Source: Solirubrobacteraceae bacterium
GTDB taxonomy: Bacteria; Actinomycetota; Thermoleophilia; Solirubrobacterales; Solirubrobacteraceae
NCBI GenBank assembly: GCA_030447505.1
Contig: JAUJOT010000007.1
Location: 62,001 to 126,000 of the forward strand
DNA: 64,000 nt
Direction: 5' to 3'
Every line of letters starts with the position of its first letter. Positions within the stretch are counted from its first letter, which is position 1. A model generated the notes under the pieces. That model saw nothing but the letters and a program-made list of their open reading frames with translations, did no database searches and was not told the origin of the DNA. Shown here one piece after another: positions 10,744 through 15,990 of the stretch. The position numbers were made by a program, and so were the translations under genes.

Positions 10744-12822
10744 CTACTGCGGGTCGACGTCGACGCTGAACGCCACGCCGCGCCTGGTGCGGTCGCCCGC
10801 GACCTCCGCCACCGCCGCGCCGGCGGCGCCGATCGCCGGCCCCCGCTGCGAGCCCTTGATGACGAGCTGCGCCCGCTCGCGGCCGCGCAGGCGAAAGAGT
10901 GGCGCCGGGCCGAGCACGATCGCGCCGGGGATCTCTCCGAGCGCCGCGCGGATCGCGCCAACCGCCTCCCCCACCGCCTGTCCCTCGCTCGCAGAGCAGA
11001 CGATCCGGATCAGGTGCGAGAACGGCGGATAGCGCAGCGCCTGCCGGCGGCCGAGCTCGGCGGCGAGGAAGCCGTCGGCGTCGTGGCGCGCGGCGGCGAC
11101 GATCGAGGCCGCCTCGGGCGCCATCGTCTGGACGAGCACGCGCCCGCCGCCCGCGCCGCGGCCGGCGCGGCCGGCGAGCTGTGCGACGAGCGCGAACGTG
11201 CGCTCCTCGGCGCGGAAGTCGGGAAAGCGCAGCGTGCTGTCCGCGTCGACGACGACGCCGAGCGTGACGTCCGGGAAGTCGTGGCCCTTGGCGACCATCT
11301 GCGTCCCGAGCAGGATGCCCCGCTCGGAGTGCTCGAAGCGGCGCAGCAGCAGACCGGGATCGCGGACCTCGGCATCGAGGCGAAAGACGTCGTGACCGAT
11401 CTGCGCCAGGTCATGCTCCAGCCGCTCCGTCCCGGCGCCGTGGCGCGCGACGGAGATCGAGCCGCACGTGACGCAGCGCTCGGGCACCGGCTCGCGATGG
11501 CCGCAGTGGTGGCAGGCGAGGTGGCGCTGCGCGCGGTGCAGCACGAGCGCCACGTCGCACTGTGGGCACGTCCAGGCGTGCCCGCACGAGCGGCAGTCGA
11601 CGAAGTTCGACCAGCCGCGGCGGTTGAGCAGCACGATCGCCTTGCGCGCGTCGACGAGCGCGTGGCTCGTGTCGGGGTGAAGCGGCCCTTGGCGCTCGCG
11701 CATGTCGACGATCCGCACCGGCGCAAGCGGCCGTCCGTCGACGCGCGCGGGCAGCCGCAGGCGGCGCAGCGCGTGGACGCTCTCGGGTCGCGGCGTCGCG
11801 CTGCCGGCGACGAGCAGCGCGCCCGCCTGCTGCGCGCGGCGCGCGGCGACGTGGCGGGCGTCGTAGCGCGGGTCGCCCTCGTGCTTGTAGGAGGAGTCGT
11901 GCTCCTCGTCGAGCACGATCAGGCCGAGCCCCTCGATCGGCGCGAAGACCGCCGAGCGCGGGCCGACGCAGACGCGCGCCGCGCCGCTGCGCAGGCGCGT
12001 CCACTCGTCGTGGCGCTCGCCGGGCGACAGCTTCGAGTGCAGGACGGCGACGGTGTCGCCGAAGCGGTCGACGAAGCGGCTGACGATCTGCGGTGTGAGC
12101 GCGATCTCCGGCACGAGGACGATGACGCCTCGCCGCTGCGCGAGCGCGGTCGCGGCGGCACGCAGGTAGATCTCCGTCTTGCCCGAGCCGGTCACACCGT
12201 GCAGCAGCAGCGGCTGCGGCCGGCTGTCGTTCAGCGCGCTGTCGACGTCGGCGAGGACGCGCGCCTGGTCGGCCGTGAGCGGTGGCGGCTGCGCGCGGCG
12301 CGCGCCGACCGACGCGTGCTCGACGTGGCGGCGGGTGGCGCGCCGTTGGAGCCGCACGAGCCCGCGCGCCTCGAGCCGGCGCAGCGCGGGCAGATCGGAG
12401 CCCGCGGCGCGCGGAAGCTCGGCGAGCAGCGCGCGCTGGCGCGCCGTCGGCCGACGGCCGCGCGGCGCGCCCGCCACGGTCGCGCTCGCCCACCACGTCA
12501 GCTTCGCGCGACCTCGCGGCGGCGGCGACACGAGCGCGAGTGCACGCGCGAGCGTCGAGCAGTACTGCTCGGCGATCCAGGCGGCGAGCTCGACGAGGTC
12601 CGGCGGCAGGTCGTGGTCGAGTACGCGGCGCGGTGCGGCGAGCCGCTCGTCGGGCAGATCCGAGGAGTCCGCGAGGCCGACCACGACGCCGACGACGTCG
12701 CGGTGGCCGAAGGGCACGACGAGCACCGAGCCGATGTCGACGCCGTCGGGGCGCAGGTAGTCGAACGGCCCGCGCAGGGCGCGGGCCGTCGTAATCGGCT
12801 CGACCTTCGCAACCGGCGGCAC
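10744..12822 (-). CDS. priA: primosomal protein N' (replication restart helicase)
   Basis: 692 residues from a GTG at 12822. The open frame extends upstream without an ATG and with unlike sequence, so the GTG that precedes KVEPITTARALRGPFDYL is preferred. The DNA-binding N-domain is followed by Walker A GVTGSGKTEIYL, the DEEHD box, the Cys-rich zinc insertion (CGHAWTCPQC, CHHCGHREPVPERCVTCG) and helicase motifs GTQMVAKGHDFP and QLAGRAGRG. Many actinobacterial PriA proteins have eroded helicase motifs, but this one looks intact. Heads the def-fmt-rsmB block. Confidence 0.93.
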   Translation of the reverse strand: MPPVAKVEPITTARALRGPFDYLRPDGVDIGSVLVVPFGHRDVVGVVVGLADSSDLPDERLAAPRRVLDHDLPPDLVELAAWIAEQYCSTLARALALVSPPPRGRAKLTWWASATVAGAPRGRRPTARQRALLAELPRAAGSDLPALRRLEARGLVRLQRRATRRHVEHASVGARRAQPPPLTADQARVLADVDSALNDSRPQPLLLHGVTGSGKTEIYLRAAATALAQRRGVIVLVPEIALTPQIVSRFVDRFGDTVAVLHSKLSPGERHDEWTRLRSGAARVCVGPRSAVFAPIEGLGLIVLDEEHDSSYKHEGDPRYDARHVAARRAQQAGALLVAGSATPRPESVHALRRLRLPARVDGRPLAPVRIVDMRERQGPLHPDTSHALVDARKAIVLLNRRGWSNFVDCRSCGHAWTCPQCDVALVLHRAQRHLACHHCGHREPVPERCVTCGSISVARHGAGTERLEHDLAQIGHDVFRLDAEVRDPGLLLRRFEHSERGILLGTQMVAKGHDFPDVTLGVVVDADSTLRFPDFRAEERTFALVAQLAGRAGRGAGGGRVLVQTMAPEAASIVAAARHDADGFLAAELGRRQALRYPPFSHLIRIVCSASEGQAVGEAVGAIRAALGEIPGAIVLGPAPLFRLRGRERAQLVIKGSQRGPAIGAAGAAVAEVAGDRTRRGVAFSVDVDPQ

Positions 12823-12909
12823 GGGTTCAAAGCATGGCGCACGTCGCGGCGCCGGCTCTGGTGGGGTTCTTGCCCGCCCGCGTCCGGGCACGTGCCTACC
12901 ATCGTCGGC

Positions 12910-13479
12910 ATGTCGACGCCGCGATCCTCCGAGTCGGTTGCGTCCACGGCGCGGCATGTCGAGCAGATCGTGCAGGCCGCCGAGCGCGCCGCCGAGGAGC
13001 TGCGCGTGGAGGCCGAGCGACGGGCGGCCGAGCGGATCGCGGAGGCCGACCGAGCGGCCGAGCTGCGTATCAGGGCCGCCGACGAGGAGGCCGACGAGGT
13101 GCGCTCGGAGGCCGTCGCGGCGGCCGAGGGCCTGCGCGACGAGGCAGCCGAGGCGGCGGCCGAGGCCCGCCATCAGGCCCAGGCGCGCGCGCGCGAGCTG
13201 ATCGCCGAGGCGCGCGCCGTCGCGCGCGAGGTGCTGCGCGAGGGCGAGACGCTGAGCGGCCACCTGCGCGAGCTGTCGGACTCGCTGCGCGTCAACGCCG
13301 AGCGCCTGCTGCGCGACGTCCGCGACGCGCACTCCCAGCTGACCGCCCGCCTCGACGGCGCCGATCCCGACCGTGCCGCCCATCGCTCGCCTTCCGCACG
13401 GGACGGCCGCGCGCCCTCGACGTCCTCGGCGTCGGCCGAGCCCGAGGTGCCGGAGTTCATCCCGCGGCGGCCGCGCTGA
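12910..13479 (+). CDS. Ala/Glu/Arg-rich coiled-coil protein
   Basis: 189 residues. Residues about 10-145 form a continuous, highly charged alpha-helical coiled coil (for example EELRVEAERRAAERIAEADR), followed by a Pro/Ser-rich tail ending in EFIPRRPR. It resembles DivIVA-like or ATP-synthase b-like rods in composition only, and no family can be named. Divergent from priA with 87 bp between starts, so the region between probably holds both promoters. Confidence 0.7.
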   Translation: MSTPRSSESVASTARHVEQIVQAAERAAEELRVEAERRAAERIAEADRAAELRIRAADEEADEVRSEAVAAAEGLRDEAAEAAAEARHQAQARARELIAEARAVAREVLREGETLSGHLRELSDSLRVNAERLLRDVRDAHSQLTARLDGADPDRAAHRSPSARDGRAPSTSSASAEPEVPEFIPRRPR

Positions 13480-13510
13480 CGTTCCGTCCGATAGGCGAAC
13501 TAGCGTTCGC

Positions 13511-14041
13511 ATGGTGACCGAGCTGACATCGAGCCAGAAGGGCGGTCTCGCCGAGCTGAAGATCGCTGCCGCCGCGGCGAATCTCGGGATCGGAGTGCTT
13601 CGTTCGATGACGGATGGGCTTCGTTACGACCTCGTCTTCGACGTCGAGGGACGGCTTCTGCGCGTCCAATGTAAGTGGGCGCAGCGCAAGGGCGACGTCG
13701 TTTCGATCTCGTTACGGACGAGCCGCCACACGCCCAGCGGGTACGTTCGAACGCGGTACAACGACGATGAAATCGACGGCTTCGCTGCCTATTGCCGAGA
13801 CTTCGATCGCTGCTTCTTCCTGCCTATCGACGAGTTCAACGGACAGACCCATGCGCACCTGCGCTTGGGGCCCGCTCGGAACGGCCAGCAACTCGGTGTT
13901 AAGATGGCCGACGATTACCTGCTTGGGGCTGTAGCTCAGCTGGGAGAGCGCCTCGCTGGCAGCGAGGAGGTCAGGGGTTCGAGCCCCCTCAGCTCCATTT
14001 CGCCGGAACCTAGGTGTCGACGTTCGAACCGCGGCCGCTAG
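13511..14041 (+). CDS. PD-(D/E)XK endonuclease-like protein whose ORF reads through tRNA-Ala
   Basis: 176 residues from ATG 13511. The nuclease-like core matches the group-I-intron-endonuclease type PD-(D/E)XK family: GGLAELKIA (Glu), RYDLVFDVEGRLLRVQCKW (Asp and the QxK variant of ExK), then YNDDEIDGFAAYC. The last 39 codons are read from the tRNA-Ala gene on the same strand and the bases after it (GAVAQLGERLAGSEE and onward). The stable protein may therefore end with tRNA-derived residues or be cut when the tRNA is processed. Short residence downstream of a coiled-coil gene; likely a selfish or accessory nuclease. Confidence 0.8.
   Translation: MVTELTSSQKGGLAELKIAAAAANLGIGVLRSMTDGLRYDLVFDVEGRLLRVQCKWAQRKGDVVSISLRTSRHTPSGYVRTRYNDDEIDGFAAYCRDFDRCFFLPIDEFNGQTHAHLRLGPARNGQQLGVKMADDYLLGAVAQLGERLAGSEEVRGSSPLSSISPEPRCRRSNRGR
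13925..13997 (+). tRNA. tRNA-Ala (anticodon GGC)
   Basis: A 73-nt cloverleaf. Acceptor ggggctg pairs with cagctcc, the anticodon loop is CTGGCAG (GGC), and the T-arm is intact (ggttcgagcc). CCA is not encoded. It lies entirely inside the 3' end of the endonuclease ORF on the same strand. Confidence 0.95.
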
Positions 14042-14268
14042 TTCGTCGACTTGTTGTCTCGGTGCGGACCGAACCACCAACATGGATCTTGCCGGTCGCC
14101 CCGTCCGTATCGTCGTGAAAGTGGATGTGGGGAGACGGGCTCCCGCCTTTCTCCAGCTCGCTGTGCGCAGGCATGTAGTCGCATGGCTCGCGGAAGGCGG
14201 CCTCGCTTTGCCGAGATCGCGCAGGACGCTTCGTCCGCATCTCCAGTGGAACGGGAATAGGACTGCTA

Positions 14269-14535
14269 CTAGATCTCGTCGTCGGGCCGCGGCAGCTCCG
14301 GACGCACCGCGTTGCCGCCGGGCTCTATCTCGCGTACACGAGCTGCGCCCTCTGGGAAATCGCGCTCGAGCTCCAGCACCTTGCGGCACAGTTCGATCTG
14401 ATGGTCCGCGTCCTCGTGGCGGCGCCGCTGCGCGGCGTCGAGCTCGTCCGAGTTCCAGCCCCAGCGAACATCAGCGAGCAGGCCACGAAGCGTTCTGCCG
14501 CCGAACATAAACACGATCGCCGCCACGTCACCCAA
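14269..14535 (-). CDS. hypothetical protein, 88 residues
   Basis: The start is TTG at 14535, overlapping the end of the upstream helix-turn-helix-like gene by 8 bp. After a short hydrophobic N-terminus there is a charged helical segment (DELDAAQRRRHEDADHQIEL) and an acidic Pro-rich end. No family is recognised. It is called on its position in a two-gene unit and its plausible composition, so it could still be spurious. Confidence 0.45.
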   Translation of the reverse strand: MGDVAAIVFMFGGRTLRGLLADVRWGWNSDELDAAQRRRHEDADHQIELCRKVLELERDFPEGAARVREIEPGGNAVRPELPRPDDEI

Positions 14536-15094
14536 CGTCGGCGACGGCGTTCGTCAAATGATGGACCTCGGCCGACTTGCGCGGCCGTCCACGCCGTTTA
14601 GCCGGTACGGCGCCGCGGTTGGCGCGCCTCCGAAACGCGTCCAACCTGACGTTCAAGTCCTCGGTGACGTCAATGACAACGAGGGCGCGACCCGCCGCCG
14701 TCCCACGGACTGCGGCGATCAGCTGGTCGTCGTCGACGGCCGCCGTGACCTCGAGCGTCGTCTCGTCGACCACGATCTCGAGCCGGCGCCGGGCTGGCTC
14801 GATGGCGGCCCGCTCGAGAATGGCGTCGACGGCGCCCTCCTCGCGCAGCGCTTTCCACGCGTTGCCCCAGTCGCCGGCGCGATGACCGGGCAGCGCGCGG
14901 ACACGCTTGGCGATCGTCCCCTCGACGATGTCGCGCTCGCGAAAGATCCCATCCAGCGCCGGGCGCAGCATGCCTTGCGCGGCGAGGTCACGGCCCGCGC
15001 CGCGCGACAACCCGAGCACGGCGAAAGCGGCGTCCTCGGGCATCCAGGGGGTCGTGTCCGACAGCTGTGCCATCGTGCTGGTATTTTGGCGCAT
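14528..15094 (-). CDS. hypothetical protein with MerR-like helix-turn-helix N-terminus
   Basis: 188 residues. Residues about 20-65 (AVLGLSRGAGRDLAAQGML, then FRERDIVEGTIAKRV) look like a MerR-type winged helix. The rest is alpha/beta with a basic tail (PAKRRGRPRK) resembling an AT-hook. It may be a regulator on a small accessory island next to tRNA-Ala. ATG 15094 gives the full frame, and an internal ATG at 15073 is possible. No Shine-Dalgarno is obvious at either. Confidence 0.6.
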   Translation of the reverse strand: MRQNTSTMAQLSDTTPWMPEDAAFAVLGLSRGAGRDLAAQGMLRPALDGIFRERDIVEGTIAKRVRALPGHRAGDWGNAWKALREEGAVDAILERAAIEPARRRLEIVVDETTLEVTAAVDDDQLIAAVRGTAAGRALVVIDVTEDLNVRLDAFRRRANRGAVPAKRRGRPRKSAEVHHLTNAVADVG

Positions 15095-15327
15095 TAGTCA
15101 AACCCGAGGAGGAAAACGAGCCTAGACGTCGACGGTGTCGAGAAGACGCGGTCCACCCTGACCAGTACCGAAGCCCAGGGGCACGGTGAAATCGGGTACG
15201 GCATCAGGAGCTGTTTAGTTGCCGGCGGCCTCACCAATCGTCTGTTGATGCAGACGGCTCAACGCCTGCTGCCTGGAGGCTCGCGTTTTGCGCTCGCCGA
15301 CGGCCGCGTCGGCCGCCGTGACGGCGG

Positions 15328-15990
15328 TTGACGAGCGCCGAGAGTGGGAACGAGACCGCTGTGGCGGTTGACGCAAGCGATTTCCTTCCCGAGCAGCTCG
15401 ACCTCGAGGCGCTGCGCGAGGCCGCGCGGGACTGCCGCGGATGCGACCTCTGGAAGCCGGCGACCCAGACCGTCTTCGGAGAGGGTCCGCAGGACGCGGC
15501 GATGGTGCTCGTCGGCGAGGTTCCGGGCGATCGCGAGGATCGCGAGGGACACCCGTTCGTCGGACCTGCCGGGCGCGAGCTCGGCAAGGCGCTGGAAGCC
15601 GTCGGGATCGAGCGCGGCGAGGTCTACATCACGAACGCCGTCAAGCACTTCAAGTTCGAGGAGCGCGGCAAGCGGCGCATCCACCAGCGCCCGGACGCGA
15701 AGCAGGTCAAGGCGTGCCGGCCGTGGCTGCGCGCCGAACTCGACGCCGTGCGCCCTGAGGCGCTCGTGATCCTCGGCGCGACCGCCGCCAAGACGCTGCT
15801 CGGCAGCGCCTTCCGGCTGATGGCCCAGCGCGGGCAGCCGCTGGAGTCCGACCTCGCCCCCTTCGTCGTCGCGACGATCCACCCCTCGGCGATCCTGCGC
15901 GGCTCCGACAGCGACTCGCGCCAGGCGCAGCGCGAGCTGCTGACGGAGGATCTGCGCGTCGCTGCCGAAGCGATCGCGGCGCGCCGTTGA
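15328..15990 (+). CDS. UdgX-type uracil-DNA glycosylase / uracil-DNA crosslinking protein
   Basis: 220 residues from TTG 15328; GTG 15361 would give 209. It belongs to the uracil-DNA glycosylase superfamily: Cys-rich CRGCDLW near the N-terminus (Fe-S type), motif A GEVPGDREDREGHPFVGPAG, and motif B IHPSAILRG. The insertion GKRRIHQRP is the diagnostic R-loop of UdgX, whose His forms a covalent bond with the uracil-excised sugar in the mycobacterial enzyme. It should act in uracil repair or tolerance. Stands alone on the plus strand, tail to tail with rsfS. Confidence 0.88.
   Translation: MTSAESGNETAVAVDASDFLPEQLDLEALREAARDCRGCDLWKPATQTVFGEGPQDAAMVLVGEVPGDREDREGHPFVGPAGRELGKALEAVGIERGEVYITNAVKHFKFEERGKRRIHQRPDAKQVKACRPWLRAELDAVRPEALVILGATAAKTLLGSAFRLMAQRGQPLESDLAPFVVATIHPSAILRGSDSDSRQAQRELLTEDLRVAAEAIAARR

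What the first reader, a model, noticed from the sequence alone, without database searches (positions are those of the whole stretch)
13511..14041. Endonuclease ORF whose C-terminus is a tRNA gene
The PD-(D/E)XK ORF runs through the whole tRNA-Ala on the same strand. Transcripts must serve both as mRNA and as tRNA precursor, and tRNA processing would cut the message before its stop codon. This could limit nuclease expression or mark a selfish gene parked at a tRNA.
Basis: partly seen in the sequence, partly recalled or inferred. Interest (0 to 1): 0.5.

Follow-up and report, generated by a model that had tools for sequence, protein, structure and literature searches.

The report
Selfish DNA-cutting gene fused to tRNA
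A small DNA-cutting gene of a selfish family sits so tightly against an essential tRNA gene that its last codons hold what looks like the tRNA's own promoter and then the tRNA itself; nearly all relatives found also sit at tRNA genes, and the tRNAs beside them often have unusually changeable anticodon stems, as if each cutter travels with a tRNA copy that it cannot cut.

Summary
A PD-(D/E)XK nuclease ORF (13511-14041, +) reads in frame through the whole tRNA-Ala(GGC) gene (13925-13997) and stops 44 nt beyond. [quoted passage not shown] The read-through looks like a tolerated by-product: the fold is complete before the tRNA, the tRNA-encoded tail is modelled with low confidence, and relatives stop before, inside or beyond the tRNA. 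The adjacency is no accident: 101 of 105 family matches lie within 500 nt of a tRNA gene, and one more overlaps a group I intron that splits a tRNA. The nuclease tree follows tRNA identity, and empty, decayed and occupied versions of this locus exist in one genus. A -10-like box lies inside the nuclease's last codons, so the tRNA need not depend on the nuclease transcript. In family f6 the anticodon stem of nuclease-bearing tRNA-Ala(GGC) is hypervariable with pairing kept, while tRNA-Ala(TGC), without a nuclease there, varies far less; some other comparisons are not significant. Best reading: a free-standing homing endonuclease that cuts tRNA genes and is linked to a copy it does not cut, possibly a natural cleave-and-rescue element. 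Mobility and cleavage are inferred, not shown.

The parts
13511..14041 (+). nuclease ORF (176 aa), PDDEXK_5 / I-Ssp6803I family, reading through the tRNA; start codon not verified
13532..13921 (+). PDDEXK_5 domain, complete before the tRNA
   Evidence: G000:C1:75532-75921 = window 13532-13921; AlphaFold mean pLDDT 92 for residues 131-140, then 56, 45, 53, 59 for the blocks behind
13900..13905 (+). TAAGAT, candidate -10 box of the tRNA, inside nuclease codons G-V-K-M-A
   Evidence: the 13-mer 13895-13907 (GGTGTTAAGATGG) also precedes tRNA-Ala(GGC) in nuclease-free genome G059 (L194)
13925..13997 (+). tRNA-Ala(GGC), the only Ala-GGC gene among 45 tRNA genes found in the genome
13951..13967 (+). 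anticodon stem-loop (27-31 CCTCG, 39-43 CGAGG); part of the putative recognition site; stem allele CCTCG found in none of the 5 other congeners read
13998..14041 (+). C-terminal tail and stop codon beyond the tRNA; not conserved among relatives
13481..13896 (+). segment of 416 nt that corresponds to 21 nt in congener G051 (empty allele)
13501..13506 (+). TAGCGT, possible -10 box of the nuclease (weak; by eye)
   Evidence: inference
12910..13479 (+). upstream neighbour: coiled-coil protein; also upstream of the tRNA in four congeners (G018, G036, G051, G064)
15328..15990 (+). downstream conserved neighbour, named uracil-DNA glycosylase-like from recall (no family search run); found in G036, G064 and G084 loci

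Best explanation
[quoted passage not shown] It lies directly 5' of that gene because homing copies it to the side of the gene that it cuts. Its reading frame ends in DNA that belongs to the tRNA: the last domain codons contain the tRNA's -10-like box, and the tRNA, open in that frame, supplies a dispensable tail; in sister lineages the tRNA's conserved T8-A9-G10 supplies the stop codon. Steps shown by sequence: family membership, tRNA adjacency, box inside the ORF, empty/decayed/occupied alleles, excess anticodon-stem diversity beside nucleases in family f6 and for Ala-TGC in f1. Steps inferred: that the box is the working tRNA promoter; that the nuclease recognises the anticodon stem-loop region (as I-Ssp6803I does in tRNA-fMet); that its own tRNA copy is spared because its stem differs; that repair of a cut recipient copies nuclease plus tRNA; that the read-through itself has no selected role.
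For: Family and fold: (2ost, E 1.5e-11). tRNA adjacency: 101 of 105 matches within 500 nt, 68 within 100 nt; chance about 1.7% and 0.8%. The one of 14 sampled relatives with a group I intron (L073) has it in a tRNA gene, as I-Ssp6803I does. Six of six phage relatives examined, out of 21 records with duplicates, have a tRNA within 200 nt; two overlap it. Tree: tRNA labels need 10 changes (8 without unlabelled rows), shuffles 34.8. One locus with intact (G000), frameshifted (G018, G036), 3' remnant (G064) and empty (G051, G084) states. Stems in family f6: 17 alleles in 20 occupied loci, 6 in 21 unoccupied, permutation 0 of 10000, 99 of 100 stem pairs standard; Ala-TGC in f6: 6 alleles in 38. The mirror case for Ala-TGC in f1: 5 alleles in 5 occupied genomes, none CCTGC, against 47 CCTGC in 60 unoccupied loci.
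Against: No cleavage, homing or expression was measured. Permuting occupancy within genera is not significant (481 of 5000 in f1; 505 of 5000 in f1 and f6). In family f2 unoccupied Ala-GGC loci are as diverse as occupied ones (8 stems in 9 against 4 in 5, my count of the listing); in f1, 11 stems in 64 unoccupied and 10 in 21 occupied. Past exposure may explain this but is not proven. Some occupied tRNAs carry the commonest local stem (G544, G604: TCTGG), and CCGCC of occupied G008 Ala-TGC is also in 10 of 60 unoccupied loci. G036 (frameshifted nuclease) shares the stem of empty G051. Remnants were looked for in most f1 loci but hardly in f6. G000 has the only intact Ala-GGC nuclease among the seven genomes of its genus searched. 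No relative was found in plasmids or viral contigs, so the vehicle between bacteria is unknown. The tree has few columns; 41 of 77 forks are open.
Confidence: 0.68

Rival explanations
1. The overlap is regulatory: RNase P cuts nuclease messages at the tRNA 5' end, leaving stop-less mRNA whose product is tagged and destroyed, which keeps nuclease levels low.
For: The domain ends at the tRNA border and 28 of 44 relatives have no stop before or inside the tRNA. At other tRNAs 12 of 32 codirectional loci also end inside or beyond the tRNA (my count).
Against: Ten of 44 stop inside and 5 before tRNA-Ala(GGC); 20 of the 32 codirectional loci at other tRNAs stop before it (my count). The tRNA has its own -10-like box, so no coupling is needed.
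Confidence: 0.12
2. The tRNA-encoded residues are a functional C-terminus of the nuclease (true dual coding).
For: The tail is read in one frame by 28 of 44 relatives; the model draws a helix at 138-155.
Against: Mean pLDDT of the tail is 45-59 per block. The tRNA is open in that frame in any case. Relatives lack the tail and post-tRNA residues are not conserved.
Confidence: 0.05
3. The nuclease is a domesticated, vertically inherited neighbour with a tRNA-related or defence job; stem diversity is drift.
For: The locus is orthologous within the genus; a PADLOC profile named homing endonuclease matches; unoccupied f2 loci are diverse too.
Against: Patchy presence (29 of 101 family genomes); frameshifts and remnants; eight tRNA species within 300 nt and several orientations; in f6 the occupied tRNA varies and its unoccupied paralogue far less, and the mirror case in f1.
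Confidence: 0.13
4. It is a fragment of an integrase-borne island that uses the tRNA as attachment site.
For: Islands favour tRNA genes (general knowledge).
Against: Upstream of the tRNA, occupied and empty alleles differ by about 416 nt of nuclease gene at the 5' side. No second tRNA copy lies nearby in the window.
Confidence: 0.03

Closest known systems
I-Ssp6803I, group I intron homing endonuclease of Synechocystis tRNA-fMet
   Same: Same Pfam family and fold. It acts at the anticodon region of a tRNA gene (reference title seen in the list of PMC1995217, passages). L073 in this survey shows an intron arrangement like it.
   Different: No intron found here. The gene is free-standing, overlaps a -10-like box and the tRNA, and is linked to an uninterrupted tRNA.
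T4-type SegB and other free-standing homing endonucleases beside phage tRNA genes
   Same: Free-standing nuclease associated with tRNA genes and thought to move them (PMC13096335, section 10 read, and passages; PMC6409571 passages).
   Different: SegB is of another nuclease fold (GIY-YIG, recalled). It is in phages, without isotype preference by that paper; here clades are tied to one tRNA in bacterial chromosomes and often overlap it.
HNH endonuclease genes within mycobacterial tRNA arrays
   Same: Homing-type nuclease genes among tRNA genes of Actinomycetota (PMC6582537 and PMC5966550, passages).
   Different: Another nuclease family; extra tRNA clusters of likely phage origin, not a single-copy chromosomal tRNA.
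Synthetic cleave-and-rescue gene drives
   Same: Works like it, if the inference holds: nuclease against an essential gene, linked to a spared copy (recalled; of the eight papers listed one holds the term, not read).
   Different: Engineered, in eukaryotes (recalled); not a homologue.

Membership tests
PDDEXK_5 / I-Ssp6803I family | Profile match over the curated cut-off | tested here: met
   106.4 bits against 26.1
PDDEXK_5 / I-Ssp6803I family | I-Ssp6803I fold | tested here: met
   Foldseek best hits 2ost_A-D, E 1.5e-11 to 1.2e-8
PDDEXK_5 / I-Ssp6803I family | Active-site residues (E, D, Q, K; set recalled) | tested here: met
   D40 and Q53 invariant, E15 and K55 at 90% or more in 36 sequences, all four present in the window ORF
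PDDEXK_5 / I-Ssp6803I family | Gene inside a group I intron (typical of the named enzyme, not of the family) | tested here: not met
   No intron model matches window 12800-15200 or 13 of 14 relatives searched; L073 does
Free-standing homing endonuclease (intronless homing) | Occupied and empty alleles at one locus | tested here: met
Free-standing homing endonuclease (intronless homing) | Site-specific cleavage of the empty allele and not of the occupied one | not testable with these tools
   Only the stem divergence is indirect support
Free-standing homing endonuclease (intronless homing) | Horizontal movement (tree conflict with hosts) | tested here: inconclusive
   G011 and G047 (one genus) and G007 and G029 (one genus) fall in different pairs with 83-86% SH-aLRT support; no formal test
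tRNA-targeted integrative element | Integrase and attachment-site repeat | not tested
   Only indirect evidence against it

The most novel reading that the evidence does not exclude
A natural cleave-and-rescue gene drive in bacteria: the nuclease destroys the host's single-copy tRNA gene and, fused to it through shared promoter and coding sequence, brings a replacement tRNA whose anticodon stem has been rewritten, pair by pair, out of the nuclease's recognition. Recurrent sweeps of such units would make a core tRNA evolve fast in just the lineages and the tRNA species that are attacked.
Probability: 0.33. Interest if true: 0.85.

Novelty: new variant of a known kind. Interest (0 to 1): 0.62.

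Why it matters
It would link a whole nuclease family to tRNA genes outside introns, show a protein gene that ends in a tRNA promoter and a tRNA, and offer a cause for fast evolution of a part of tRNA that is nearly fixed in related families without the nuclease. The claim is testable with one enzyme and a few tRNA alleles.

Tried and rejected
Read-through as the main point: rejected, because relatives stop before, inside or after the tRNA and mechanical read-through ORFs occur at other tRNAs. The idea that empty alleles G051, G084 and L071 keep nuclease-derived promoters: dropped, because nuclease-free genome G059 carries the same GGTGTTAAGATGG (L194). Within-genus permutation of stem diversity: not significant, reported as such. 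A tRNA-Tyr control failed: the pattern was mis-specified (0 of 199 genomes, the window's own included), so Tyr and Thr-TGT stems (15 alleles in 19 loci, 10 in 10) have no unoccupied control. Searches for a vehicle: plasmids none, viral contigs none. Genome-contig scan: only two relatives. One search used the wrong strand for some loci and was replaced. NCBIfam gave nothing; the PHROGs match has no known function.

Full report
Observation. The ORF 13511-14041 (+) and tRNA-Ala(GGC) at 13925-13997 (+) overlap in frame as described. The ORF is a PDDEXK_5 nuclease (PF11645, E 1.6e-30), the family of I-Ssp6803I (2ost, E 1e-13 by sequence; the four best fold matches). The host is probably a Solirubrobacteraceae bacterium: two genomes of its genus have contigs of the same length as the named records L032 and L033. 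The tRNA is the only Ala-GGC gene among the 45 tRNA genes found. Below, f1 is the window's family and f2 to f7 are other families of its class, as the tool numbers them.

Is it more than chance? A mechanical ORF of 100 codons or more runs through 6 of 45 tRNA genes of this genome, this one included, so the overlap alone is unremarkable. The nuclease family is the informative part. In three overlapping surveys (29 of 101 genomes of the family; 34 of 396 of the phylum; 40 of 199 of the class) I examined 105 matches over the Pfam cut-off, pieces of one broken gene counted once. Of these, 101 have a tRNA gene within 500 nt of the domain match, 96 within 300, 89 within 200 and 68 within 100 (six matches below the cut-off dropped, of which four also have a tRNA within 500 nt). 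For a random gene at this genome's tRNA density about 1.7% would be expected within 500 nt. Eighty have the tRNA downstream on the same strand, 11 are divergent, 6 convergent, 4 have it upstream. Eight tRNA species occur within 300 nt: Ala-GGC, Ala-TGC, Tyr, Thr-TGT, Thr-CGT, Arg-CCG, Arg-TCT, Ser-TGA. Of the four matches without a tRNA, two run off their contig (L011 reads in frame into a partial tRNA-Ala; L023), one (L134) has none, and L073 overlaps a group I intron (RF00028, 63.7 bits) that splits a tRNA gene; ARAGORN calls it Ser(cga), the exon ends look to me like tRNA-fMet.

Read-through. Among 49 loci with tRNA-Ala(GGC) downstream, 44 have a domain end within 100 nt (five dropped: L022, L024, L025, L095, L130; of these L025 and the second piece of L024 do read through). 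Of the 44, 28 read through the whole tRNA, all in one frame (mostly GAxAQLGER); 7 stop at the tRNA's own T8-A9-G10; 3 stop at position 43; 5 stop before the tRNA; 1 runs off its contig. Sequence behind the tRNA is not conserved. At other tRNAs, of 32 codirectional loci 20 stop before the tRNA, 7 inside it and 5 read through (my count). AlphaFold (36 sequences) gives mean pLDDT 92 for residues 131-140 and 45-59 for the blocks behind, which the tRNA encodes from residue 139 on. I conclude that the tail is tolerated, not needed.

Promoter. A TAnnnT hexamer lies 10-22 nt before the tRNA in 44 of 49 loci; the background rate in the same genes predicts 0.96. It falls in different codons in different clades (V-K-M here; A-A-T-L in class-mates). 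Most nuclease-free loci of f1, f6 and f7 also have such a box, usually 10-13 nt before the tRNA, but the 17 loci of f4 and a few of f1 do not. L194, of nuclease-free genome G059, carries the very 13-mer GGTGTTAAGATGG that encodes the nuclease's G-V-K-M. So the nuclease's 3' end carries what looks like the tRNA's promoter element. This is a consensus match, not a mapped start site.

One locus, several states. In this genus the tRNA-Ala(GGC) locus is orthologous: priA and the coiled-coil gene lie upstream in G018, G036, G051 and G064 as in the window, and one or more of the window's downstream genes in all five congeners read, G084 included. The nuclease is intact in the window, frameshifted in G018 and G036 (sequencing error in those assemblies not excluded), reduced to a short 3' remnant in G064 and not detected in G051 and G084. 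G084's contig starts 414 nt before the tRNA; I recognise the end of the coiled-coil gene there by eye. Against G051, 416 nt (13481-13896) correspond to 21 nt.

Specificity. In a tree of 80 of the 105 nucleases (short or broken ones left out) the tRNA labels need 10 changes, against 34.8 on shuffling; 39 tRNA-Ala(GGC) nucleases form one group with 99% SH-aLRT support, four others lie outside. The label of L011 was set by hand. The tree rests on 134 columns and 41 of 77 forks are open. Six phage and archaeal-virus relatives, examined out of 21 records that include duplicates, all have a tRNA within 200 nt, some of them in tRNA-dense regions; Pectobacterium phage My1 overlaps tRNA-Ile by 7 nt and cyanophage Sf-FR1 ends inside tRNA-Val.

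Anticodon stems. In family f6, 20 occupied tRNA-Ala(GGC) loci have 17 different stems, 21 unoccupied ones 6 (permutation 0 of 10000), with 99 of 100 stem pairs standard, so the changes are compensated; tRNA-Ala(TGC) of f6, beside which I found no nuclease, shows 6 stems in 38 loci. Four families without any PF11645 match have, by my count of the listing (which is cut short), 1 stem in 17 loci (f4), 2 in 18 (f5), 2 in 34 (f3) and 2 in 8 (f7). In f1 the mirror case holds: genomes with an Ala-TGC nuclease have 5 Ala-TGC stems in 5 genomes, none the usual CCTGC, against 47 CCTGC of 60 unoccupied loci (G046 was added; the pattern matched 63 of 101 genomes).

Results that do not fit so well. In f2 both kinds are diverse: 4 stems in 5 occupied and 8 in 9 unoccupied Ala-GGC loci (my count). 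In f1 there are 10 stems in 21 occupied and 11 in 64 unoccupied genomes. Over f1 and f6, pairs within a genus differ in 24 of 24 cases if both are occupied, 51 of 64 if one is, 59 of 153 if none is, but permuting occupancy within genera does not reach significance (505 of 5000; f1 alone 481 of 5000). Genera with at least three loci: none of 12 with an occupied member is uniform, 4 of 6 without one are (Fisher 0.005). The two exceptions, g13 and g25, hold remnants or an occupied genome that the pattern missed, and moving them gives 0 of 14 against 4 of 4 (0.0003); that regrouping was made after seeing the data, it disregards a distant weak hit in g2 (L288), and the upstream regions of g297 were not fetched. 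Pooled over loci the 27-31 entropy is 1.37 bits in occupied, 1.08 in unoccupied f1 and f6 loci, and 0.42 in 25 loci of f4 and f7. Occupancy and stem diversity go together by family, genus and tRNA species in most but not all of these comparisons; which causes which is inference.

Mechanism. The likeliest account is intronless homing: the nuclease cuts the tRNA gene of a recipient, and repair from the donor copies the nuclease together with its adjoining tRNA. [quoted passage not shown] A nuclease that sits beside an uninterrupted target must spare its own copy; the altered anticodon stem would do that. If so the linked tRNA is the rescue allele. None of this was measured.

Novelty. Held papers describe homing nucleases near tRNAs: SegB (PMC13096335, section 10 read, and passages), HNH genes in mycobacterial arrays (PMC6582537, PMC5966550, passages), virus tRNA clusters (PMC6409571, passages), and two reviews of group I introns and homing endonucleases (PMC3984707, PMC3943268, passages). 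Ten searches, on PF11645, I-Ssp6803I with tRNA, tRNA-overlapping ORFs, anticodon stem with homing endonuclease, PDDEXK_5 and related words, listed no paper whose title or abstract start describes this arrangement or the stem diversity; I opened passages of seven of the listed papers, and most subscription papers, including the 2007 structure paper of I-Ssp6803I, are not held, so it may be in print elsewhere. I rate it a new variant of a known kind.

Noticed in passing
L021, L084, L105, L116, L122, L132, directly 3' of tRNA-Ala(GGC): The nuclease frame runs on behind the tRNA into a Phd/YefM antitoxin-like sequence (PF02604, E 8.6e-8 and 1.7e-9 for the L021 and L122 pieces; the other four by eye); perhaps a second resident of the same tRNA.
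   Followed up: partly
L036 (G031) and L038 (G010): Two PDDEXK_5 genes in tandem before one tRNA-Ala(TGC).
   Followed up: no
G601 (L118, L124) and G623 (L128, L130): Genomes with two tRNA-Ala(GGC) genes, each with its own nuclease and a different anticodon stem; contamination of the assemblies not excluded.
   Followed up: no
L034, L104, L120, L121: Ala-TGC nucleases in convergent orientation, facing the tRNA's 3' end; the L034 ORF runs antisense into the tRNA.
   Followed up: no
L117 (G507): A family member beside tRNA-Ser(TGA), ending inside it; a further tRNA species.
   Followed up: no
window 14528-15094 (-): ORF of 188 aa 3' of the tRNA without a Pfam match.
   Followed up: no
L174 (G000:C10:361452, tRNA-Ala(CGC)): A mechanical ORF of 454 codons also reads through this tRNA.
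   Followed up: no
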